Assembly (NCBI GenBank): GCA_003054655.1
Contig: QAYZ01000016.1
Coordinates: forward strand, 682,001 to 746,000
DNA: 64,000 nt
DNA from: Spartobacteria bacterium LR76
GTDB taxonomy: Bacteria; Verrucomicrobiota; Verrucomicrobiia; Chthoniobacterales; Terrimicrobiaceae
Reading direction: 5' to 3'
This document shows positions 1 through 61,625 of this stretch, piece after piece (position 1 is the stretch's first letter; every line of letters starts with the position of its first letter). A program made the position numbers and the translations under genes. Below the pieces are notes generated by a model. That model ran no database searches. It worked only from the letters and a program-made list of their open reading frames with translations, and was not told where the DNA came from.

Positions 1-2
1 TG

Positions 3-1172
3 GCGCTCATCGTCTCGCCCACGGCGGGCTATAGCGCCGAGACAATCCGTAGCCTCGTGGTTCCCACATGGCTTGATCCTCGCGTGGGCATGCCGTTTCG
101 AGGATGCCTTTTTGAGCGTGGCACATGGGAGGCTCAACAGGTGCAATCCCTGGTCAACTGGGCCAAGATCGACGCCTCCTTTGCTCGCCAGGGGATTTCG
201 ATGCGCCTGCATAACGCCACGACGCCCAGGGCAAAAACGATCGAGCGGATCTTCGGCGTCGAACAGGACCGCACGTCTGTTCTTCCCGGATACATCGGAC
301 GCGGCAAGGGCGATGGCCGATATGAGCGCGTCGATCGTTTTCTCCAGTCTCTCCGCAAGGCCGGGCAGCCACGCAAGGAGAACGTTGATCCTCGCGAGAT
401 GCTTTTGAGCCTGGAGGAATTCACCTCGCGTCTCCAGGAAATCATGCGGGATCTCTCGAAAGAGCCAATCAACGGCTCTCGCCATCGCGGGCGAAGCCCT
501 GAGGAGATGTGGGACGAGTCATTGTCTCAGGCGACCGTGCGCCCGCGTCAAGTCCTCCCGGCCAGCCTGGAGTATCTCCTCGCGACCAAGGAAACCGAGG
601 TCAAGGTGTCGACCGATGGCATCCTCCTCACCATAGGCCGGGAGAGGTATCAGTATTGCGCAAGCGAGCGGCTCGGCCTTCTCGTCGGGCGCAAGGTCTC
701 GGTGCGCTATGCAGGACGGGTGCCCGATCATATCATCGTTCGCGATCCGGTCGAAGATCCCAAGGGGCTGGCTCCCTTCACCGTGCCGCTCCGCCAGCGC
801 ATTCCCGCGATGTCAGCGACTCGGGAGCAGTTCAAACAAGCCCGGGCTGAGGAAAACCTCTTTATCTCGCAGCAACGCGCTCTTTATCGGCTCATCGCCC
901 CGTCGAACAATATCACCGTACAGAGGGCAGACCTCGGCACGGAATCCCTGCGGGCGGAGGGCGAAGCGATCTCCGCCGCCGAGCGAGAGTTTCAGAAGAA
1001 AGAGAGCAAGCGTCGGGAGCTATCGCCCAAGGCGGCAGAGCTGGGCCGCCGTCGTGGCCTGGATACCACGGGCCAAGACCCGGAGCGCGTAATCAGCGTG
1101 CTCGGCCCGATCGACGAGCTCAGACGCAAAATCCTTGCCCAAGAGGAAACCCAAACCGGAGCCGACGAATGA
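3..1172 (+). CDS. Mu/Tn7-type DDE transposase, C-terminal part (5' end outside window)
   Basis: The frame is open to the first base of the window, so this is the C-terminal ~390 residues of a larger protein. The segment AKTIERIFGVEQD resembles the last catalytic block of rve-type DDE integrases, where the third acidic residue lies in a K-x-x-E context. After it come a helical stretch with RGRSPEEMWDE and a beta-rich domain (about residues 170-260 of the visible part), as in the C-terminal domain of Mu-type transposases. A basic helical tail ends the protein. The stop overlaps the start of the next gene (ATGA at 1169), so it is translationally coupled to a AAA ATPase, the usual transposase/helper pairing. 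The catalytic aspartates lie outside the window, so activity cannot be judged. Confidence 0.8.
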   Translation, partial: ALIVSPTAGYSAETIRSLVVPTWLDPRVGMPFRGCLFERGTWEAQQVQSLVNWAKIDASFARQGISMRLHNATTPRAKTIERIFGVEQDRTSVLPGYIGRGKGDGRYERVDRFLQSLRKAGQPRKENVDPREMLLSLEEFTSRLQEIMRDLSKEPINGSRHRGRSPEEMWDESLSQATVRPRQVLPASLEYLLATKETEVKVSTDGILLTIGRERYQYCASERLGLLVGRKVSVRYAGRVPDHIIVRDPVEDPKGLAPFTVPLRQRIPAMSATREQFKQARAEENLFISQQRALYRLIAPSNNITVQRADLGTESLRAEGEAISAAEREFQKKESKRRELSPKAAELGRRRGLDTTGQDPERVISVLGPIDELRRKILAQEETQTGADE

Positions 1173-2734
1173 ACGAAAGTAACGCCCCCATCAATCCGCT
1201 GAACATCGCTTACAGGCTGAATCTTGTTCGGAATTTTGAGGATAAGATTGCCATGAACGGAATCGAAGCTCAGCCCGGGATTCCTGAAATGATCTGGGCT
1301 TTGCAGTGGTTCAGTGAGCCGAAGAATTTCCCGGGAGGTCTTGATCGTTTCGCCGCGGAATTCATCGAGCAGAATCAAGAGCGGCTCGGTCCGCCGGCAT
1401 TGCGCGAATGCCTCGCGGCTGGCGGAATCGACGCCATCCTCGAGGAGCGGCTCAAGGAGGTAGTCCCAAATAGCTGGATTAAATATCGGTGCCGTTGGAA
1501 GTTTCTTAGCGACCTTGCTTTTGCGGAGGTGCCTACGCCAGGTGAACTGCACAAGGATCTTGTTGATGATGCAAAGGAGGTGCTTTCCGCCTATCTGCGC
1601 CGAGCATGTCATCAACCGGGAGTGGAGTTTTTTCCGTGCTCTCCGCTCAACATCCAAAGGTTCTACGATGAGGAGGCTTTTGGATCGTCAGAAAGGCCGC
1701 TCGGAGGGTTCATCCCGTGGTACTGGCCCAATATCTGGAATGATTTGATTAGCTGGATGGACCGCCGTGCAGAATTGATTTCCTCCGAAATTGCCAAAAC
1801 TCGGGTTTCTGAAGATGTCCGGAAGTGGGTTCGTTTGTCCCGCGAAACCCGGTTGCCCGTTTGGCTCAACGGATCCTCTCGATTTGGAAAAACAGAGACG
1901 CTCAAATCGATTTCTAAAGCCCGACCTGGAGCGTTCCGCCTCGTAGATACACCCGACGATAGTTCCGTGCTGAGCTTGTGCAGGGCTATTGCAAAGGCGT
2001 TGGGAATCGATTGCGCAAACCAGACCGAGCAGGAATTGCGCATCAACATCGAAGATGTCCTGGAGTTTTCCGGGATCATGCTCCTTTTTGACGAGGCGCA
2101 TTTCATATTTGGTTCAACCTCCGGCGGGAACATCCGGCCAAAGCGCCTAGATATGGTACGTCGCCTTATCATCGACAAGGGCTATCCCGTTTGTTTCGTA
2201 TCGACACCCCAGAGCTACGGGCAGGCACGGCGGAAATTTGAGAAGGCGACCTCTTTCACATTCGAGCAACTCGATGGGCGGCTCCTTTCCCAAAACCCGA
2301 TTAACCTCCCCGAGGAGATTTCTCATGAAGAGGTCGTCGCCGTCGCGGCCATCCATATGCCGACGCTGAGCGCGGATTATCACGACTTCGTTGCCCGCCA
2401 TGCCCAGGCTGTTAAGGGGAGCATTTATTCCTATGTCCGGAGCGTCGCCAAACTGGCGGAGGTTTACAGCCAGGATGCAGGGCGCTCGCAGATCTCTCTG
2501 GCTGATATTGAATCGGCAGTTTCCGATGTGCTCCCTGCCCTTCCCCCATCCGCGCCAGCGGTACCCGTGGCTCCAGCTCCGACGAGAAAGAAGGCCACCG
2601 CCGAAACCATTTTTCATTCCAACGATCGCCGATCGGAAGAAATTCCGCCGGAATCTCGCATCCAGCGTCTGCCTGTTTTGAGTGATCAAAAGGAGACACC
2701 GGAGCGTTCTTCGCTAGCGTCCGCTGCCGCATAG
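1169..2734 (+). CDS. AAA ATPase, transposition helper (TnsC/MuB-like)
   Basis: The 521-aa protein has a P-loop NGSSRFGKTET near residue 234 and a Walker B strand IMLLFDEAH near residue 303. STPQ, about 45 residues later, resembles a sensor-1 motif. The ~200-residue N-terminal region is not a domain I recognise. The C-terminal ~80 residues are Pro/Ala-rich and probably disordered. Helpers of this class bind target DNA with ATP and activate a DDE transposase, and the 4-bp overlap with the transposase upstream supports that role. A general AAA regulator is the alternative, but the context argues against it. Codon use is less GC-rich than that of the chromosomal genes further right. Confidence 0.78.
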   Translation: MNESNAPINPLNIAYRLNLVRNFEDKIAMNGIEAQPGIPEMIWALQWFSEPKNFPGGLDRFAAEFIEQNQERLGPPALRECLAAGGIDAILEERLKEVVPNSWIKYRCRWKFLSDLAFAEVPTPGELHKDLVDDAKEVLSAYLRRACHQPGVEFFPCSPLNIQRFYDEEAFGSSERPLGGFIPWYWPNIWNDLISWMDRRAELISSEIAKTRVSEDVRKWVRLSRETRLPVWLNGSSRFGKTETLKSISKARPGAFRLVDTPDDSSVLSLCRAIAKALGIDCANQTEQELRINIEDVLEFSGIMLLFDEAHFIFGSTSGGNIRPKRLDMVRRLIIDKGYPVCFVSTPQSYGQARRKFEKATSFTFEQLDGRLLSQNPINLPEEISHEEVVAVAAIHMPTLSADYHDFVARHAQAVKGSIYSYVRSVAKLAEVYSQDAGRSQISLADIESAVSDVLPALPPSAPAVPVAPAPTRKKATAETIFHSNDRRSEEIPPESRIQRLPVLSDQKETPERSSLASAAA

Positions 2735-2764
2735 CAAAAAAGCAACACTTTCTCAGTCAGCGTC

Positions 2765-2946
2765 TTAAACCGGCCACGGGCCGGAGCTAAAGCTACGTTC
2801 GCGAAGTCCCGCAATGTGCAATCGGAGTTCGCGACAACCTAGCCCGGAATATACATCTACCGGGTTGGAGTGCATGGGCTGGCGTATGCGCCAGAGGCAC
2901 TTTTCATAGAAGGGTCATAGAGCAGCTGACGCCTACGCGTCAGTTG
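2765..2946. repeat. Cluster of inverted repeats, candidate phage intergenic/origin or packaging region
   Basis: The 418-bp gap after the ATPase gene contains at least five hairpins. CCGGCC/GGCCGG lies at 2770-2784 with a 3-nt loop. TCGCGAA/TTCGCGA, extended to TCC/GGA across one mismatch, lies at 2799-2833. CCCGG/CCGGG lies at 2843-2864 and CTGGCG/CGCCAG at 2879-2894. The strongest is a 10-bp stem with one G-T pair at 2923-2932/2937-2946, with a 4-nt loop. None has a T-tract, so they do not look like terminators. Filamentous phages carry such hairpins in the intergenic region as strand origins and packaging signal; that role here is inferred from the flanking phage genes. Confidence 0.5.
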
Positions 2947-3676: not shown

Positions 3677-4224
3677 ATTCTCGCGTCGTCCGGTTGTGGC
3701 ATTCCTTTGCCGTTGGTCTTTTTCGTGCGGCTCTTGTTTTCCGTGGGCGGGGGCTTCGAGCTGAAATGCGGGAATGCGCTTTGGAGGCTGTCGCCTATCA
3801 GCGTTCTGTAGATCCAACGGTTTTTCGTTACCAATCGACCTTTGACGGCATTTTTGTCGCCCACCCCTCACTTACAGAGGGGGTGGCGACCTGCGCGGAG
3901 CGCGTAATCAGCGGGCGCGAGGGTAGCGCCCGCCGCTCCGCAAGCAACGGTCGCGTGATTTGCCGAGCAAGCGGCGTGACAGAAGAGGGCGAAAGGGCTT
4001 CTGGCGCGTCGTTTGCTGGCTCGCGATCGGGCAACGATCAAGCAGGGGTTCATGATATCGCGTCTCCGGTAGCGGCCCCGAAACCTTGCAGGGGCGGACG
4101 CGGGGCATGTTCGGTTACTCGCTCTCAATTTTTACCAGTTTCCAACGGCGTGCACTCCGTTCGGACGGCATCGGGTTCCCGGCCCGGTGTCGAGAATTTC
4201 ACCAAAAAACAAAAACATGAATGA
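3673..4224 (+). CDS. Questionable ORF running through a hairpin-rich region
   Basis: A 183-codon frame starts with GTG 3673, overlapping the upstream stop (GTGA), and ends at TGA 4222-4224, overlapping the ATG of the next gene at 4217. The first ~60 residues (to about 3860) could be protein, with a hydrophobic N-terminus. The remainder is Ser/Arg/Gly-rich with no convincing structure, and its DNA is dominated by long inverted repeats. The frame may therefore end its useful coding early, or the whole may be fortuitous. Coupling at both ends is the only argument in favour. Confidence 0.25.
   Translation: MNSRVVRLWHSFAVGLFRAALVFRGRGLRAEMRECALEAVAYQRSVDPTVFRYQSTFDGIFVAHPSLTEGVATCAERVISGREGSARRSASNGRVICRASGVTEEGERASGASFAGSRSGNDQAGVHDIASPVAAPKPCRGGRGACSVTRSQFLPVSNGVHSVRTASGSRPGVENFTKKQKHE
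3858..4102. repeat. Large nested hairpins, candidate filamentous-phage origin/packaging signal
   Basis: Three strong structures occur in 245 bp. The first is 3858-3888, with CGCC/GGCG and ACCCC/GGGGT arms around a short loop. The second is an interrupted stem with an 8-bp outer arm (GCGGAGCG 3895-3902 with CGCTCCGC 3934-3941) and an 8-bp inner arm (GCGGGCGC 3911-3918 with GCGCCCGC 3926-3933). The third nests CGCGTC/GACGCG (4059-4064, 4097-4102) around GCCCC/GGGGC (4075-4079, 4091-4095). A smaller GATCG/CGATC pair lies near 4025-4040. No T-tracts follow. Location just upstream of the coat genes and lack of good coding sequence fit an inovirus intergenic region; the function is inferred. Confidence 0.5.
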
Positions 4225-4480
4225 ACTAGCACCAATCATTGAACTGGCTATGACGCTGTTTCAAGGCGTCATGGTACTTGCCGCTGTGATCTTGGGTTTC
4301 CTTTGCGGCAGGAAGTTGCTGCGAAAGGCAGGCCTTGGAGAGTCTACCGGTCCCGCTTCGGCATGGGATCGTGTCCAGGCTTCGGAGCGCGAATGGGGAC
4401 CGATTCACAAGAGTTTTTCCCGCCAGCAATACAAGAAAAGTGGCGGGCGTAATTTCGGCGCCGGATACCCCCGCAAATAG
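4217..4480 (+). CDS. Coat-protein-like membrane protein with C-terminal extension
   Basis: The start is taken as ATG 4217, giving 87 aa. Residues 1-8 are slightly acidic. A membrane helix spans about residues 9-28 (LAMTLFQGVMVLAAVILGFL) and is followed by GRKLLRKAGLG. The segment GF-x-x-GRKL-x-x-K is shared with the 38-aa coat protein 350 bp downstream (GFVAGRKLFAKL), so the two look like paralogues. This copy adds ~50 polar residues at the C-terminus. In filamentous virions the basic C-terminus faces the DNA, so an extended copy could be a minor capsid protein. There is no cleavable signal peptide. The function is inferred from similarity and position. Confidence 0.6.
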   Translation: MNELAPIIELAMTLFQGVMVLAAVILGFLCGRKLLRKAGLGESTGPASAWDRVQASEREWGPIHKSFSRQQYKKSGGRNFGAGYPRK

Positions 4481-4525: not shown

Positions 4526-4560
4526 TTTACGCGTAAAAAACAAAGAAGAAAGGAGGTGAA
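4526..4560 (+). promoter_or_regulatory. Palindrome and strong ribosome binding site of the coat gene
   Basis: A perfect 12-bp palindrome TTTACGCGTAAA (4526-4537) is followed by an A-rich stretch and AGGAGGTGA (4551-4559). The AGGAGG core ends 9 nt before the coat ATG at 4566. This is one of the clearest Shine-Dalgarno sequences in the window and fits the need for thousands of coat copies. The palindrome may be an operator or part of a promoter; that is not established. Confidence 0.55.
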
Positions 4561-4565
4561 TACTA

Positions 4566-4682
4566 ATGGACGCAATCACTGATTTGCTCACCGATGCGAC
4601 AACGCTCTGGACCGCGATTTCGGTTCTGGCCGTCGTGGTGATCGGTTTCGTGGCCGGTCGCAAGCTCTTCGCCAAGCTGTAA
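4566..4682 (+). CDS. Major coat protein (pVIII-like) of filamentous phage
   Basis: A 38-codon gene encodes a protein with the layout of an inovirus major coat protein. The N-terminus is acidic and amphipathic (MDAITDLLTDATTLW), a single hydrophobic helix follows (AISVLAVVVIGFVAG, about residues 17-31), and the C-terminus is basic (RKLFAKL) and would contact packaged ssDNA. Support comes from the AGGAGG site 9 nt upstream and a factor-independent terminator immediately downstream, the same arrangement as gene VIII of Ff phages. No signal peptide is present, as in some inoviruses. It is short enough to be missed by gene callers. Confidence 0.75.
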   Translation: MDAITDLLTDATTLWTAISVLAVVVIGFVAGRKLFAKL

Positions 4683-4698: not shown

Positions 4699-4732
4699 CA
4701 GCGGTTCCCTACTAAAAACCGCTGCAATTTTT
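4699..4732 (+). terminator. Rho-independent terminator after the coat gene
   Basis: A perfect 8-bp stem CAGCGGTT (4699-4706) / AACCGCTG (4717-4724) with a 10-nt loop is followed by CAATTTTT. It lies 16 nt after the coat stop codon and would limit transcription into the low-expression adsorption and assembly genes, as the central terminator does in Ff phages. Confidence 0.75.
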
Positions 4733-4739
4733 CCTATCT

Positions 4740-4814
4740 ATGGATTTTGTTCATTATTTCGTGGCCGGAATGCTCTTGCCGCTCTTTCTCCTTTACTGGG
4801 TTGTTCGCAATTAA
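4740..4814 (+). CDS. 24-residue membrane peptide, possible pVII/pIX-like minor coat protein
   Basis: ATG 4740 to TAA 4812-4814 encodes 24 residues: MDFVHYF, then a hydrophobic core VAGMLLPLFLLYWVV, then RN. Size, the single hydrophobic segment and location between the major coat gene and the adsorption gene match the very small minor coat proteins (pVII, pIX) that cap Ff virions. It follows the terminator closely and ends 4 nt before the adsorption-protein ATG (4819). There is no convincing Shine-Dalgarno, which lowers confidence. Confidence 0.4.
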   Translation: MDFVHYFVAGMLLPLFLLYWVVRN

Positions 4815-4818
4815 TCCT

Positions 4819-6786
4819 ATGAAGACTTTTTTCTTTTTCTTGGTGATGCTGTGCCTAGCTTTAAAGGTGAACGCCTCAGGGCCGACGTACACCTGGACGA
4901 ATGGAACGACGGTAAACGGCAAGGCGGGCTGGTTGCCTAATGGCGTCTCATTCTCTTCTGGGACAGTGACTATAAACGTTTCGGTTACGGCTACTCCGGG
5001 GTCTTATTACGTTGTCTATGAGTCAACGCTTGTTCAATCGGGGTCAACAACGGTTAGCCAGACGTTCAACAATGGCACTAGTTTTAGGACTGGCACGGGA
5101 GGCTCTTTTACTGTTCCTGCGGGGGGTAATTATACTTATAGTTTCACAACGAGCTGGAGCGCGGGGGCTGTCAGCGCGGGAGGTGGCGAAAAGACATCTG
5201 GTGAAATCACGATTGCGGTTTGGCGGCAAACGTTGAAGCTTTATTCTTCTTCTGGCGAGCTTCTGCAAACGCAGTTCTTCGAGGTCGGCGGTGATGTGTT
5301 TACTATCGTTGGTTCTGGGGGTGTTCCTGCTCTCAATATCACTGGTCCTGCCTCGATTTCGTTTGACACCACGGCACCGACACCAACGCCCACGCCTTCC
5401 CCGACTCCAGCCCCCTTAACTCTTGATCTTAACGGAACCGCAACTAAAGCCGTCTATCAGCTGTATATTGATGGTCAGTTGTACAAAGAACAAGAGGTTT
5501 CGTCGGGAAGTACGACTATCGACATTCCTCACTCGGCTGAATTTCAGGGGAAAAAGTACCTTCTTAATTTGAAAACCATAGGTTACGGCGAGGAGAATTC
5601 CGTAACCAATAAGACCATTGCGGAGGGCATTATTGAAGCTGGCGATACATACGATGACGTGGCGGTTGATGCTCAGAAATCTAATCCGCTTCCTGTGTCT
5701 TCTATTGATTCCACTGGTAATGTTACAAAAAGCAATGTCTCAGTTTCCCAAATAGAGTGGAAACCGGGTGATATCGAGACGACCTACACTTATACGGTCG
5801 GGGGCAACACGACGACTGTTGCGTATCAGGGAACCGGCTCGGAAAGTGTCACTGTTTACGAGCTTCGTGCTGCGTCCGTTCAAAATATGGCGGGACAAGA
5901 GGCTATAACGCAAGCCGTCAAGGAGAATACCGCTACAGCTTCGCAGGGTGATCAGGCTCTTGTTGATGCCATAAACGCGAACACGCAAAGCACATCCGAG
6001 GGCCTAGAGGCTCTGGCAGGTGCTATTTCTTCGCCTAGTCCCTCCCCGACTCCAGATCCTGGCTCTAGCCCGTCACCTACTCCGACTCCAGAGCCTAGCA
6101 GCGTAGAACAAGAGATTGAGGAGTTTGACACTTCGGCTTTCTCCGTTGGCGATGGCCCCGGAAATATCGCTAGCCTCAGCAATCAAGTGCAATGGACTGT
6201 TCGGATGCCCGGCAGCAATCAGCTTGTTGATTTAAATCCAATGAACCAAAGTTGGTTCGCTCCGTTGGCCTACTGGATCAGGCAAATTATATGGTGGATT
6301 CTCACTATCGTTACGATTCGCCACATTTATTTAAAGGTCCGCGAGTTGATTGACGAATTTGTTCAGGCGGCACTTGGCGCAGACATTACTCGGTTCGTTC
6401 GCAATAACACGAGTATTCTGGCTACGTTGGCTGCGAAGATTCCGGGTGCGGGTCCCTTCCTGCAGGTCATTGTTTTCTTTATTGGCAATGGTCCAATTAT
6501 TGCCGCCATTGTTCTTTTCACCGGGTTTATTGTCCTGCATTTTGCGCCTGCCGCTCTTGGCTCAACGCCTCTCGTTGGCTGGTTAATCGGGGGGCAGGGT
6601 TTTGTTGCGAATCTTGCTCAGGTGATCGTTCCCAATAGTCCCGAGCTTCATACATCTGTTTTCCTGCTCAATCAGTTTATTCCTGTGGATCACGTCCTTT
6701 CGTGTTTATTCGTTTTCCTTATTAGCGAGGTCGCGGGGGTGTTCTTTGTGGCGTCTGCTTGGTTGTGGTGGAGGTCGAAAATATGA
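4819..6786 (+). CDS. Phage adsorption/minor coat protein (pIII-like)
   Basis: ATG 4819 is preferred over a longer frame because it gives a classic signal peptide (MKTFFFFLVMLCLALKVNASG). The 655-aa protein then has Ser/Thr/Gly-rich beta-type sequence. Two proline-threonine-serine linkers follow, near residues 190-202 (PTPTPTPSPTPAP) and 405-428, which separate domains as glycine-rich linkers do in Ff pIII. The C-terminus has several hydrophobic segments (about residues 482-507, 546-580 and 625-652) and ends WWRSKI, consistent with membrane anchoring before virion release. The N-terminal domains would bind the host receptor, though no receptor can be named. It follows the coat terminator and overlaps the next gene by ATGA at 6783. 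Confidence 0.7.
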   Translation: MKTFFFFLVMLCLALKVNASGPTYTWTNGTTVNGKAGWLPNGVSFSSGTVTINVSVTATPGSYYVVYESTLVQSGSTTVSQTFNNGTSFRTGTGGSFTVPAGGNYTYSFTTSWSAGAVSAGGGEKTSGEITIAVWRQTLKLYSSSGELLQTQFFEVGGDVFTIVGSGGVPALNITGPASISFDTTAPTPTPTPSPTPAPLTLDLNGTATKAVYQLYIDGQLYKEQEVSSGSTTIDIPHSAEFQGKKYLLNLKTIGYGEENSVTNKTIAEGIIEAGDTYDDVAVDAQKSNPLPVSSIDSTGNVTKSNVSVSQIEWKPGDIETTYTYTVGGNTTTVAYQGTGSESVTVYELRAASVQNMAGQEAITQAVKENTATASQGDQALVDAINANTQSTSEGLEALAGAISSPSPSPTPDPGSSPSPTPTPEPSSVEQEIEEFDTSAFSVGDGPGNIASLSNQVQWTVRMPGSNQLVDLNPMNQSWFAPLAYWIRQIIWWILTIVTIRHIYLKVRELIDEFVQAALGADITRFVRNNTSILATLAAKIPGAGPFLQVIVFFIGNGPIIAAIVLFTGFIVLHFAPAALGSTPLVGWLIGGQGFVANLAQVIVPNSPELHTSVFLLNQFIPVDHVLSCLFVFLISEVAGVFFVASAWLWWRSKI

Positions 6787-7124
6787 GAGCTCAATTCATC
6801 AATTCCAGCGATTCCCCTGTTGAAATCGCGATCTCTGTCAACGGCGGTTCTGCGTCTCTTCTTCGGGTTCCTCCGGGTGCAGTGTTCACACTTCCCGCAC
6901 ATAGTGACGTTGGCCTCGTTGGCTCCTCCGCTGTCATTTCTACAGATAGTGCGTCCATCGTTTCGGCGGATGTCTCCGGCCTCCATTTTATCGAGGCTGA
7001 TCGAGCTGAGAGCATGGCTTTTAACGATGGGCTGACTTTGAGCAGTTCCGTTTTCGCGTTCGTCCTGGCGCTTTGGTTGTTTCGCAAGGGACTCCTTGGG
7101 CGGGGCGCGCTTGGTGAGGAATAG
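6783..7124 (+). CDS. Small phage membrane protein (pVI-like position)
   Basis: ATG 6783 overlaps the stop of the adsorption gene (ATGA). The 113-aa product has a beta-rich N-terminal ~80 residues and one hydrophobic segment near residues 83-97 (SSSVFAFVLALWLFRK), followed by a short basic tail. Length and position between the pIII-like and pI-like genes match gene VI of filamentous phages, whose product pairs with pIII at the virion end. Sequence similarity to pVI is not evident to me, so the assignment rests on gene order. The next gene begins 5 nt later. Confidence 0.5.
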   Translation: MRAQFINSSDSPVEIAISVNGGSASLLRVPPGAVFTLPAHSDVGLVGSSAVISTDSASIVSADVSGLHFIEADRAESMAFNDGLTLSSSVFAFVLALWLFRKGLLGRGALGEE

Positions 7125-7129
7125 TTGAT

Positions 7130-9142
7130 ATGTCATCAAAAGCGATTAGTGGCAGGCCGGGAGGCGGCAAATCTTATTACGCGGTTAAGCTTGTTTTACG
7201 TGCTCTTGAACGGACTGACGGCCCTGTTGTTACCAACCTGCCGTTACGTCTCGAAAATATCGTCAACTATTTCCTCAAGCGAGGCATGGACGTTGCTGTT
7301 TTTGATCGCGTTCAGCTTCTTACTGACGATCAAGTTCCGGAGTTCTGGAGGTATCGCGGTAACGGTGTTGAGCCTCTGCCGAGGGTCACAAATGACGACT
7401 ACAAGCGAGGTGTCAGGCCTGATTTCGATTCCGTTCAGCCCGGCGGGGTTACGTATTTTATCGACGAATGCCATGATTTCCTGAATTCGCGGAACTGGCA
7501 GACTACAGGTAACGCAGTTCTCTACTACATTTCGAAGCATCGGCACCTTGGCGATGACGTCTACTGGATCACGCAATCTATCAAAAACGTCGATAGTCAA
7601 TTCCGTTCCGTTACTCAGGATTACACCTACTGCCGAAACTACGCCAAAGAGAAGTTTCGAGGCTTTACGAAAGGAAAGTATTTCACCGCGACAACCTACC
7701 TCGAGCCCGTAGGAGCTGGACCGAACAAGCCCGATCCGCAGGAATCTGAAAAGTACCAGATGGAGCCGGATATAGGCGCTTGCTACTACACCTCAAAGCA
7801 GAAATTGGCTGCTGATACTGGCGAGGTGCAACGAGGCCTTTCCATCAAGTGGGTTTTCGCTGGCATTGCTGTCCTGGTTGTTCTCATTTCGCTTGCTCTT
7901 TGGCTTGGTCCGAAACTTGCCGTTGAGCATTTTACCAAACCCATTCGGGAGAAGGATCAGAGGAAGCAAGAGCTTCGGGACAAGCTCGTTTCTGGCGATG
8001 CCGGCAGGGTCGGTAATGCCAGCAAGAACGCGGAGATTAACGCCGGCGCTCCTTTGTCTACTCCTGATCTCGCGTTGCCTGTTCACGTCGTTGGTGTCCC
8101 ACTCCGTTTTTCTCCTGCCTCGGCTGTTCTTGAGAAACTCGGCCCGGATCGCAACAGCCTCCTTCCGCAGGGAACGATTTCCCCCAGCCCGGACGGCTCC
8201 GCGCTGGTTATCAGCGGTACAGATCTCCAGAGAGTTCTGTCCGTCGCCGAGGTTCTACGGCAACTGGATTTGCGGTGCGCCGTCGTCACGATTCATTGTG
8301 TGGTAGGCCGCCGGGTCAAGGCATCGGCAAACGATGTCGGATTGTTCACGTGGCTTGAAAGCATCGCTCAGGCCGATTCTTCGCGTGTTGGTGATCTTCT
8401 TTCCTCCCTCGCCTTCGATTTGCAGACCGGGCTGGCGACTGTGGGCGGGACTTGGACAGCGCGTGAAGCCCTTTCTGCCTTTTCGCAGTTCGTCTCTTCC
8501 GATTCCCGGTTTGACGTTCTTTCCTCGCCTACCCTGACCACTCTGGCCGGGCAGACAGCGGTTTTTTCCTCCGGTCGGGAAATTCCCGTCCCTGAAACAA
8601 CCGTCAACCTCGGCACAAGTCAGACGAGCGTTTCATTCAAGCGGGCCGAGTTCTCCTTGAAGGTTACGCCCACTATCGACGCTTCCGGCTCTGTTCGGTG
8701 CGCTGTTGAGCAGGAAAACTCCGACGTGCTCTCTGAGGTCCGTATCGAGGGAAATAACATCCCGACGTTATCAACTCAGAAGCTCCAGACGGTAATTACC
8801 CTGGGGAAAAGACAGGTCGCCTTTGTCGGTGGAATCAAGATTCGCACGGCCAAGGACGGAAACAGAGGGACCCCGTATCTTCGGAGAATTCCCATTCTCG
8901 GAATGGTCTTCGGTCGTCAGTCCTCCAGTGAAGAGGAAAGCGAGCTTTTTGTCATGTTGGCTGCGGAGATTTCACGCCCCGGGGAAGTCCCTGATAGGGC
9001 GGAACCTGCCCGCGTCGTTAACCCGCGTCGGTTGCCCGTTGCTGACACGTCAACACTTTCCGCCGTTGCCCCGGCGGGATCGGGAAAGAAACCCGCAAAC
9101 AAAGGGCCGAAAAACCAAAAACAGGAGAAGTCAAAAAAATGA
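7130..9142 (+). CDS. Zot/pI assembly ATPase fused to pIV-type secretin
   Basis: This uninterrupted 670-aa protein combines two assembly functions. Residues 1-235 are a Zot/pI-type P-loop domain, with GRPGGGKS at 8-15 and Walker B TYFIDECHDF at 108-117. A single membrane helix lies at about 240-262 (WVFAGIAVLVVLISLALWLG). A charged periplasmic linker leads to a secretin N-type domain (about 320-395). The secretin core (about 445-615) contains VLSSPTLTTLAGQTAVFSSG, the VTP segment, IPTLSTQ and TPYLRRIPILGMVFG, all hallmarks of the GspD/PilQ/pIV family. A Lys-rich tail follows. In Ff phages pI and pIV are separate inner- and outer-membrane proteins that meet in the periplasm. Here one chain could span the envelope. 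The stop overlaps the next ATG (9139). Confidence 0.88.
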   Translation: MSSKAISGRPGGGKSYYAVKLVLRALERTDGPVVTNLPLRLENIVNYFLKRGMDVAVFDRVQLLTDDQVPEFWRYRGNGVEPLPRVTNDDYKRGVRPDFDSVQPGGVTYFIDECHDFLNSRNWQTTGNAVLYYISKHRHLGDDVYWITQSIKNVDSQFRSVTQDYTYCRNYAKEKFRGFTKGKYFTATTYLEPVGAGPNKPDPQESEKYQMEPDIGACYYTSKQKLAADTGEVQRGLSIKWVFAGIAVLVVLISLALWLGPKLAVEHFTKPIREKDQRKQELRDKLVSGDAGRVGNASKNAEINAGAPLSTPDLALPVHVVGVPLRFSPASAVLEKLGPDRNSLLPQGTISPSPDGSALVISGTDLQRVLSVAEVLRQLDLRCAVVTIHCVVGRRVKASANDVGLFTWLESIAQADSSRVGDLLSSLAFDLQTGLATVGGTWTAREALSAFSQFVSSDSRFDVLSSPTLTTLAGQTAVFSSGREIPVPETTVNLGTSQTSVSFKRAEFSLKVTPTIDASGSVRCAVEQENSDVLSEVRIEGNNIPTLSTQKLQTVITLGKRQVAFVGGIKIRTAKDGNRGTPYLRRIPILGMVFGRQSSSEEESELFVMLAAEISRPGEVPDRAEPARVVNPRRLPVADTSTLSAVAPAGSGKKPANKGPKNQKQEKSKK

Positions 9143-9453
9143 AGATCAAAGCACTTGTGGTCGGAGACCAGACCACCCCCGGCAAGAAGGACCCTTCGAA
9201 GCTCTACCGACGGTTAACCCTTGTCGATCAAGACGACGATATCGAGGGCCGTTTGGAATCCATGTTCCAGCTCTCCATCCCGGAGGAGACCAACGAGAGG
9301 AAGAACCTCGCGGGGGCCGTCGTCAGGGTGGCAATCAAGCGTATCGAAGAATCCGACTGGCGAGGGCTCGAGTTTCGCGGCAATGTCGTCGGCATCGACG
9401 GCGTGATGAAGTTCGAGCCGCTCAAGGCGGGGCCGGGTCCGATGAAGGGCTAG
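9139..9453 (+). CDS. Phage ssDNA-binding protein (pV-like)
   Basis: The 104-aa protein is coupled by ATGA to the assembly gene and precedes the replication initiator, the usual place for the ssDNA-binding protein that coats plus strands and switches from replication to packaging. It is rich in beta-type segments and charged residues (LYRRLTLVDQDDD, VVRVAIKRIEES, WRGLEFRGNVVGI) and has no membrane segment. Size is close to the ~87-110 aa of known pV-type proteins. I do not see diagnostic motifs, so the call rests mainly on position, length and composition. Confidence 0.6.
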   Translation: MKIKALVVGDQTTPGKKDPSKLYRRLTLVDQDDDIEGRLESMFQLSIPEETNERKNLAGAVVRVAIKRIEESDWRGLEFRGNVVGIDGVMKFEPLKAGPGPMKG

Positions 9454-9457
9454 TCTC

Positions 9458-10402
9458 ATGGCGCACGCTCACGCAACCATAGCGGACAGCGGCGAAGCCG
9501 CGGCCGCTGTGGTGCGTGGGCTTGTCAATCATTCCATATTGTCACAGGACATGCCCGTTTGCGGGTTGTCCGTTTTCCGCCGGGACTGCAAAGTAGCGAA
9601 GCGAATGCAGCCCGGCATTATTGTTGGGAAATTTGGCACGGGCGGTCGCCGTGGTGTCATTCCGGGTTTTTCGGCAAAGGCTCGATATCGCTTTTTACAT
9701 GTGGTCAAAAACTGTGACGTTGATTTCAAGAGCATGCTGACACTCACCTATCCGGCGGATTTCCCTAGCGATGGGCAGACTGTGAAGCGCAAGCATTGGC
9801 GAGTTTTTAGCCAATGGCTTACGCGTCGTTTCCCTGGTATTCGCGGTTGTTGGTTCCTTGAATTTCAAAAGCGTGGTGCACCTCATTTTCACGTTCTGTT
9901 GTCGTTTGATCTGTCGGCTTATCCGATTCTTGAGCGCAGGCGTACGCGGCAGAAAGGCGGTGAAAAGTGGAGCAAGATTTATCGGACTGTCGATCTACTT
10001 GAACGTGAGGTTGCCCAACGTTGGTACGAAATAGTCAATTCTGGAGATATCAAGCATCTTCGAGCTGGTGTTGCTTGGGAAGTGATCGAGGAAAGCGAGG
10101 GCGCATTGCGCTACGCTGCCTGTCATGCATCAAAGCCTCATCAGAAGAAAGTGCCAGAGGGCTATCTGAATGTGGGTAAATTTTGGGGCTACGTTGGCGA
10201 CGTCAAAGTTGAGGAGGTCGCACGAGTCGAGATGAATGCAGAGACAATTTTCGAGCGCCTTGGTTGCGACGGGATGAGCCGCAAGGGGCGAGTGAAAAAG
10301 TACCTCTGGGACGCCGCAGAAAAATTCTCTCCAGAGGTCTTTGCTGATCGTGATCGCCGATTGAAGCAGGCTGACTTTCTAGGCGTTTTACCGGAATCTT
10401 AA
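9458..10402 (+). CDS. Rolling-circle replication initiator (HUH endonuclease)
   Basis: The 314-aa protein shows the order of motifs of HUH Rep proteins. Motif I is LTLTYPA near residues 94-100. The metal-binding HUH motif is PHFHV (His143, His145). A tyrosine-containing motif, LRYAACHASK, has Tyr219 as the candidate nucleophile. Such enzymes nick the plus-strand origin of filamentous phages and plasmids and restart rolling-circle synthesis. The gene lies 4 nt after the ssDNA-binding gene. The stop overlaps by 2 bp the stop of a convergent gene. The nick site probably lies in one of the hairpin regions near 2.8 or 3.9 kb, which is inference. Confidence 0.85.
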   Translation: MAHAHATIADSGEAAAAVVRGLVNHSILSQDMPVCGLSVFRRDCKVAKRMQPGIIVGKFGTGGRRGVIPGFSAKARYRFLHVVKNCDVDFKSMLTLTYPADFPSDGQTVKRKHWRVFSQWLTRRFPGIRGCWFLEFQKRGAPHFHVLLSFDLSAYPILERRRTRQKGGEKWSKIYRTVDLLEREVAQRWYEIVNSGDIKHLRAGVAWEVIEESEGALRYAACHASKPHQKKVPEGYLNVGKFWGYVGDVKVEEVARVEMNAETIFERLGCDGMSRKGRVKKYLWDAAEKFSPEVFADRDRRLKQADFLGVLPES

Positions 10403-10953: not shown

Positions 10954-11172
10954 GCAATGTTGCGCTCATTTCTAAAGAAAGATTCCGTCGAGGGCAACCA
11001 AGGAAACCGTGAACTTATTCAGTTATTGCTTCGCCTCGAAAAAAAAGCAAAAAAAGCTCTTGTAAGGTATATGTCATATATAGTTGAGAATAAGAACCTG
11101 GTCGAGGAGATTGCCTTTCGAACTTGTCCGCTTTCCCGGGTCGCCGATTCCCTCTAGCCTCTGGGTTCCGGC

Positions 11173-12117: not shown

Positions 12118-14027
<1,910 letters not shown>

Positions 14028-61255: not shown

Positions 61256-61295
61256 GAGAGGACGACCTCTCCTGAACCGCACTCGGGACGGCCCG
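61256..61295 (+). promoter_or_regulatory. Guanidine-II (mini-ykkC) riboswitch
   Basis: Two hairpins with the diagnostic ACGR tetraloops lie just before the sugE-type gene. The first is GAGAGG-ACGA-CCTCTC (61256-61271), the second CGGG-ACGG-CCCG (61284-61295), with a 12-nt linker. This is the complete consensus of the guanidine-II class, in which two guanidinium ions dock the loops and free the ribosome binding site. The second hairpin ends 12 nt before the ATG at 61308. Confidence 0.85.
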
Positions 61296-61307
61296 GATCA
61301 TCATGTT

Positions 61308-61625
61308 ATGAACTGGGTATACCTTGCACTCGCGGCATTTTTTGAAATTGGCTGGGCCGTCGGCCTGAAATATAGCGACGGATTCCGGCGTCCGCTGGCC
61401 TCGACCGTCACGCTCCTCTGCCTCCTGCTGAGCATCACGCTTCTGGGCGTGGCGGCGCGCTCGCTGCCCATCGGGACGGCCTATGCGATCTGGACGGGAC
61501 TCGGCGCGGCCGGGACGTTCCTTTGCGGATCGCTGCTGCTCGGTGACACCCTGTCTCCGCTCAAGCTCGCCTGTATCTCCCTGATCCTACTCGGGGTGAT
61601 CGGCCTGAAGCTCGCTCCTCACTAG
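61308..61625 (+). CDS. gdx: SMR-family guanidinium exporter (SugE/Gdx)
   Basis: The 105-aa protein has four membrane helices and the SMR motif WVYLALAAFFEIGWAVGLKYSDGF. The essential Glu lies in helix 1 at AAFFEIGWA, and helix 3 is TAYAIWTGLGAAGTFLCGSL. The sequence is closer to SugE/Gdx than to EmrE. Placement behind a guanidine-II riboswitch strongly supports guanidinium export with proton exchange. It stands alone, after pabB and convergent with the BcsC-like gene. Confidence 0.92.
   Translation: MNWVYLALAAFFEIGWAVGLKYSDGFRRPLASTVTLLCLLLSITLLGVAARSLPIGTAYAIWTGLGAAGTFLCGSLLLGDTLSPLKLACISLILLGVIGLKLAPH

What the first reader, a model, noticed from the sequence alone, without database searches (positions are those of the whole stretch)
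4566..4682. 38-residue major coat gene hidden between larger frames
The short frame has the exact charge and hydrophobicity order of a major coat protein, a consensus AGGAGG site and its own terminator. It is the key virion gene and would be missed by most gene callers, making the element look incomplete.
Basis: partly seen in the sequence, partly recalled or inferred. Interest (0 to 1): 0.62.

Follow-up and report, generated by a model that had tools for sequence, protein, structure and literature searches.

The report
Leaderless coat gene of filamentous prophage
A tiny 38-amino-acid gene in a filamentous-phage prophage of a Verrucomicrobia bacterium is real and conserved, and is almost certainly the protein that would coat the virus particle; this is a new example of a well-known kind of gene, in a prophage with some unusual neighbours.

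Summary
ORF 4566-4682 (+) encodes MDAITDLLTDATTLWTAISVLAVVVIGFVAGRKLFAKL: three acidic residues, one hydrophobic segment, three basic residues. AGGAGG lies 9 nt upstream and a terminator follows.

The same 38-codon frame is in two related prophages: G001 (89% identical; dN 0.08, dS 0.62) and G013 (68% identical, where flanking proteins are only about 50%). Each copy has its own Shine-Dalgarno and terminator; the G013 stem has a different sequence. All three copies match the PHROG family 'major coat protein' (best E 0.0014); Pfam's coat model stays below its cut-off.

Gene order is like Pf3 and Ff: coat, terminator, pIII-like, then pI (Zot) and pIV (secretin). An in-frame stop at 4557-4559 rules out a signal peptide, so the model is Pf3-like: YidC insertion without a leader. 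That step is inferred.

The prophage sits at a dif-like site. A separate Mu-like element is inserted in its left arm, so the transposase genes upstream are not part of it.

Extras: a tailed coat paralogue (4217-4480), a conserved 24-aa gene (4740-4814), and pI-pIV fused in one 670-aa frame.

Verdict: new member of a known kind.

The parts
4566..4682 (+). major coat protein gene (pVIII/Pf3-like), 38 aa, no signal peptide
4551..4556 (+). Shine-Dalgarno AGGAGG of the coat gene, conserved in G001; AAGGGGGTG in G013
   Evidence: sequence; alignments; start-region comparison
4699..4732 (+). intrinsic terminator after the coat gene (8-bp stem, T-run); same place in G001, different stem sequence in G013
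4217..4480 (+). coat paralogue, 87 aa: N-terminal 37 residues align with the coat, plus a ~49-residue charged hydrophilic tail; no SD; no homologue of it found in G013
4740..4814 (+). conserved 24-aa membrane microprotein between coat terminator and pIII-like gene (candidate minor cap protein)
4819..6786 (+). pIII-like adsorption protein: signal peptide, Pro/Thr/Ser linkers, hydrophobic C-terminal part
   Evidence: sequence and position; homologues in L024, L025 and L061; no family match
6783..7124 (+). 113-aa protein with one C-terminal TM segment, conserved in G001 and weakly in G013; candidate minor coat/assembly protein
7130..9142 (+). pI (Zot ATPase) and pIV (secretin) fused in one 670-aa frame
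9139..9453 (+). 104-aa conserved protein, candidate ssDNA-binding protein (pV role) by position
   Evidence: homologues in G001 and G013; no family match
9458..10402 (+). rolling-circle replication initiator
11068..11084 (+). right attachment repeat TATATGTCATATATAGT; left copy outside the window at G000:C11:671070-671086

Best explanation
4566-4682 is the major coat protein gene of a filamentous phage (inovirus) integrated at the dif-like site of a Verrucomicrobia bacterium. Proposed working: the gene is strongly translated from its AGGAGG site and its transcript ends at the terminator, which separates abundant coat from the scarcer products downstream (inferred from anatomy). The 38-residue protein has no leader, so, like Pf3 coat, it would be inserted by YidC with the acidic N-terminus out and the basic C-terminus in the cytoplasm (inferred; the host has yidC). 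During extrusion through the pI-pIV machine the subunits would leave the membrane and stack round the ssDNA, basic ends inward (inferred from Ff/Pf3 knowledge). Shown here: the frame, its purifying selection, its signals, its place in an inovirus gene cluster, its conservation in three prophages.
For: Same 38-codon frame in G001 (89% id) and G013 (68% id), each with SD, terminator, 24-aa gene and pIII-like gene after it. dN 0.076 / dS 0.62 and third-position bias. Charge-hydrophobic-charge order unique in the window. PHROG_1646 'major coat protein' matched by all three members, best E 0.0014, over residues 2-37 in the window copy. Pfam Phage_coatGP8 weakly, same span. Profile of coat plus paralogue finds Pf3 coat 1ifp in PDB at E 9.2, and Pf3 coat ranked first among ORFs of 19 fetched loci (E 0.71). 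Element has Zot, secretin and rolling-circle Rep. Best consensus SD of the cluster. Single helix 2-37, pLDDT 89. YidC present in the genome.
Against: No virion or protein data. Pfam score is below the curated cut-off; no phage record matches by tblastn. Similarity to Pf3 coat is marginal: 7-12 of 1000 composition-preserving decoys score as well. A tailed paralogue lies beside it in two of three elements, so the roles could be divided. Only three elements of this lineage were found.
Confidence: 0.9

Rival explanations
1. The upstream 87-aa paralogue (4217-4480) is the main coat protein and the 38-aa protein is a minor or end-cap coat protein.
For: The two are clear homologues over 37 residues, and the paralogue also has the acid-hydrophobic-basic order.
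Against: No homologue of the paralogue was found in G013, while the 38-aa gene is there. The paralogue has no SD in either genome and overlaps the preceding frame. The coat has AGGAGG and its own terminator. A ~49-residue hydrophilic tail on the DNA-facing end would be hard to pack at thousands of copies (inference).
Confidence: 0.05
2. The 38-aa protein is a minor cap protein (pVII/pIX-like) and the major coat is some other gene.
For: pVII and pIX of Ff are also short, leaderless, single-TM proteins encoded next to gene VIII (established knowledge).
Against: The SD/terminator arrangement and length fit pVIII better; a separate 24-aa conserved microprotein fits a cap role; no other acid-hydrophobic-basic ORF with an SD exists in the element.
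Confidence: 0.03
3. It is a small membrane-active protein (holin-like or type I toxin) unrelated to the virion.
For: Short single-TM proteins with a basic C-terminus are common among such proteins (established knowledge; no tool result supports it here).
Against: Fixed place just before the pIII-like gene in three inoviruses; duplication giving a tailed homologue in the same cluster; coat-family matches.
Confidence: 0.02

Closest known systems
Major coat protein of Pseudomonas phage Pf3 (NC_001418, ORF44; PDB 1ifp)
   Same: Leaderless, single TM helix, acidic N-terminus and basic C-terminus, gene directly before the large virion/adsorption protein gene.
   Different: 38 instead of 44 residues; similarity marginal (22 columns, hhalign probability 40%); host is a verrucomicrobium; Pf3 has separate pIV and pI genes, here fused.
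Ff (M13/f1/fd) pVIII and the gene VIII-terminator-gene III order
   Same: Order coat, intrinsic terminator, pIII, then pI and pIV (Ff order from established knowledge).
   Different: No signal peptide; shorter; pI and pIV are one frame.
Coat candidates of other inoviruses of the phylum (L090, L091, L095, L099)
   Same: Small single-TM proteins with a basic C-terminus upstream of Zot.
   Different: 50-79 aa, two with evident signal peptides; not alignable to this one; Zot and secretin not fused.

Membership tests
Inovirus major coat protein (pVIII-like) | short protein (30-90 aa mature) with one TM helix | tested here: met
   38 aa, one hydrophobic window; helix 2-37; criterion as in PMC6813254
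Inovirus major coat protein (pVIII-like) | acidic N-terminus, hydrophobic middle, basic C-terminus | tested here: met
   -3 / +3; order kept in all three copies
Inovirus major coat protein (pVIII-like) | lies in an inovirus gene cluster with pI ATPase, adsorption protein, Rep | tested here: met
   Zot, secretin and Rep profiles; same order in G001 and G013
Inovirus major coat protein (pVIII-like) | significant match to a curated coat family | tested here: inconclusive
   PHROG_1646 best E 0.0014, all three members; Pfam PF19199 13.6 bits, below cut-off 24.6
Inovirus major coat protein (pVIII-like) | thousands of copies in the virion | not testable with these tools
   needs virion proteomics
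Pf3-type leaderless coat | no signal peptide possible | tested here: met
   in-frame TGA at 4557-4559; only 4 extra codons possible in G013
Pf3-type leaderless coat | YidC-dependent, Sec-independent insertion | not testable with these tools
   host YidC present; pathway for Pf3 per PMC9360617
Pf3-type leaderless coat | sequence homology to Pf3 coat | tested here: inconclusive
   decoys 7-12 of 1000 equal
Inovirus (Tubulavirales) prophage | pI/Zot morphogenesis ATPase | tested here: met
   Pfam Zot E 8.6e-12, PHROG pI/Zot families
Inovirus (Tubulavirales) prophage | inovirus-like genome size | tested here: met
   about 8.1 kb between repeats in G001; in this genome 22.0 kb because of a 13.7 kb Mu-like insertion
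XerCD/dif-integrated phage | prophage flanked by copies of a dif-like core, single copy at the empty site, no own integrase | tested here: met
   17-bp repeat at both ends in G000 and G001, one copy (1 mismatch) in the empty site of G002 next to the same gene; related site found once in each of 12 genomes; no recombinase recognised in the element

The most novel reading that the evidence does not exclude
The prophage represents an undescribed lineage of filamentous phages of Verrucomicrobia with a very short leaderless coat, a duplicated coat gene whose copy gained a DNA-side tail and became a low-copy cap or packaging-signal protein, and an export machine in which the pI motor and pIV secretin are one polypeptide, which forces equal numbers of motor and channel subunits unless the chain is cut.
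Probability: 0.4. Interest if true: 0.6.

Novelty: new member of a known kind. Interest (0 to 1): 0.35.

Why it matters
It shows the element has a recognisable set of virion genes and so could make particles. It adds a conserved, leaderless coat to a phylum for which PMC6813254's main text names no example. The setting (tailed coat paralogue, 24-aa gene, fused pI-pIV) gives a compact system for asking how filamentous phages cap and export themselves.

Tried and rejected
Viral-contig scans with the Zot-secretin, Rep and coat queries found no relatives. tblastn of the coat in 50,697 phage records: none. PDB by single sequence: none. Rep-like hits in other genomes of the order (L046-L052) show no coat, Zot or pIII homologue of this lineage and were set aside. 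AlphaFold2 of the Zot-secretin fusion was too poor to use (pLDDT 43.6), so no fold search was made. Idea that the transposase/ATPase genes at 57-2734 belong to the phage: rejected, they belong to a Mu-like element with TG...CA ends and a 5-bp target duplication, absent from G001. Idea that other phylum members share the pI-pIV fusion: not seen; in L093 and L096 the two are separate neighbouring genes. Sigma-70 promoter scan gave no more sites than chance.

Full report
What is there. The frame at 4566-4682 (+) encodes 38 residues, MDAITDLLTDATTLWTAISVLAVVVIGFVAGRKLFAKL. AGGAGG precedes the ATG by 9 nt, and an in-frame TGA at 4557-4559 excludes a longer protein and hence a signal peptide. A terminator follows the stop codon at once. 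The acidic-hydrophobic-basic order with an SD is found in no other 30-60-codon ORF of the 64 kb window and in none of 150 simulated elements (criteria set after the fact).

Conservation. The Zot-secretin protein of the element has full-length relatives in two of 97 related genomes: G001 (same genus, 96%) and G013 (same family, 48-49%); both are Verrucomicrobia MAGs. In G001 the whole cluster is collinear. Its coat differs at 4 residues, with 13 of 19 substitutions at third codon positions; dN 0.076, dS 0.62. In G013 the first contig examined starts inside the pIII-like gene, so the coat region was missing. A profile of the coat and its paralogue then found it on another contig (C88, E 2e-16): MDEFTSLVTEAGTLWTAVAALAVLVIGFLAGRKLFRKL, again 38 codons, with AAGGGGGTG before it, a terminator of different stem sequence after it, then a 24-aa gene and the start of the pIII-like gene. 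Coat identity (68%) exceeds that of Zot-secretin (48%) and Rep (57%).

Identity. All three coats match PHROG_1646 'major coat protein' (best E 0.0014; residues 2-37 of the window copy). Pfam Phage_coatGP8 aligns over the same span but below its cut-off. A profile of coat plus paralogue gives Pf3 coat (1ifp) as a marginal PDB match, and Pf3 coat was the best-scoring ORF among 19 fetched loci, 18 of them Zot regions of phylum members. About 1% of composition-preserving decoys score as well, so homology to Pf3 is suggestive only. Gene order (coat, terminator, large adsorption-type protein, small protein, pI and pIV) resembles that of Pf3 and Ff. The second reading that matters is which of the two paralogues is the main coat. 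The 87-aa copy lacks an SD in both genomes, overlaps the frame before it, carries a ~49-residue tail, and no homologue of it was found in G013. The 38-aa gene is the better candidate.

Mechanism. Shown: the frame, its selection, its expression signals, its context. Inferred: high expression, YidC insertion (a YidC gene is in the genome; Pf3 coat is a YidC-only substrate, PMC9360617), N-out/C-in topology, stacking round ssDNA with the basic end inward, extrusion through the Zot-secretin protein.

Element boundaries. The prophage is flanked by TATATGTCATATATAGT at G000:C11:671070 and 693068 (window 11068), and likewise in G001. G002 has one copy (one mismatch) at the empty site beside the same nadC-like gene. 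With ACATCATATAA on the outer side of the left copy it reads as 11+6+11 bp, and the repeated 17 bp equal the centre plus one arm, as expected for XerCD integration at dif. The left part occurs once in each of 12 relatives and its reversed control never. That it is dif is inferred. In this genome a 13.7 kb Mu-like element (TG...CA ends, TCTAC duplicated) sits in the left arm of the prophage, so window 1-2855 is not inovirus DNA.

Caveats. Three elements only; no expression or virion data; the claim that gene callers miss the gene was not tested. Overall: a correct and useful observation, a new member of a known kind.

Noticed in passing
window 7130-9142 (+): pI (Zot ATPase) and pIV (secretin) are one continuous 670-aa frame, also in G001 and G013. 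Two other inoviruses found in the phylum have them as separate neighbouring genes. This would join the inner-membrane motor and the outer-membrane channel in one chain.
   Followed up: partly
window 4740-4814 (+): A 24-aa membrane microprotein (MDFVHYFVAGMLLPLFLLYWVVRN) without SD right after the coat terminator, exactly 24 codons in all three elements; in G013 its stop overlaps the pIII-like start (ATGA).
   Followed up: yes
window 4217-4480 (+): Coat paralogue with a ~49-residue basic/aromatic tail, in two of three elements.
   Followed up: partly
G000:C11:671121-684855 (window 1-2855 is its right part): Mu-like element with MuA-like (838 aa) and MuB-like genes and a tape-measure-like gene, TG...CA ends, 5-bp duplication TCTAC, inserted in the left arm of the inovirus; absent from G001.
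   Followed up: partly
window 12118-13893 (-): Glycosyl hydrolase family 1 domain fused to an AraC-type DNA-binding domain in one 591-aa frame (Pfam E 5e-139 and 7e-23), an unusual enzyme-regulator architecture.
   Followed up: no
window 61256-61625 (+): Guanidine-II riboswitch directly before a small multidrug resistance transporter gene: an ordinary guanidinium exporter arrangement.
   Followed up: no
L061 end / L025 start (G013 C88 and C30): In G013 the pIII-like gene is broken across two contigs; C30 begins with what looks like a transposase C-terminus, suggesting an insertion sequence in that gene.
   Followed up: no
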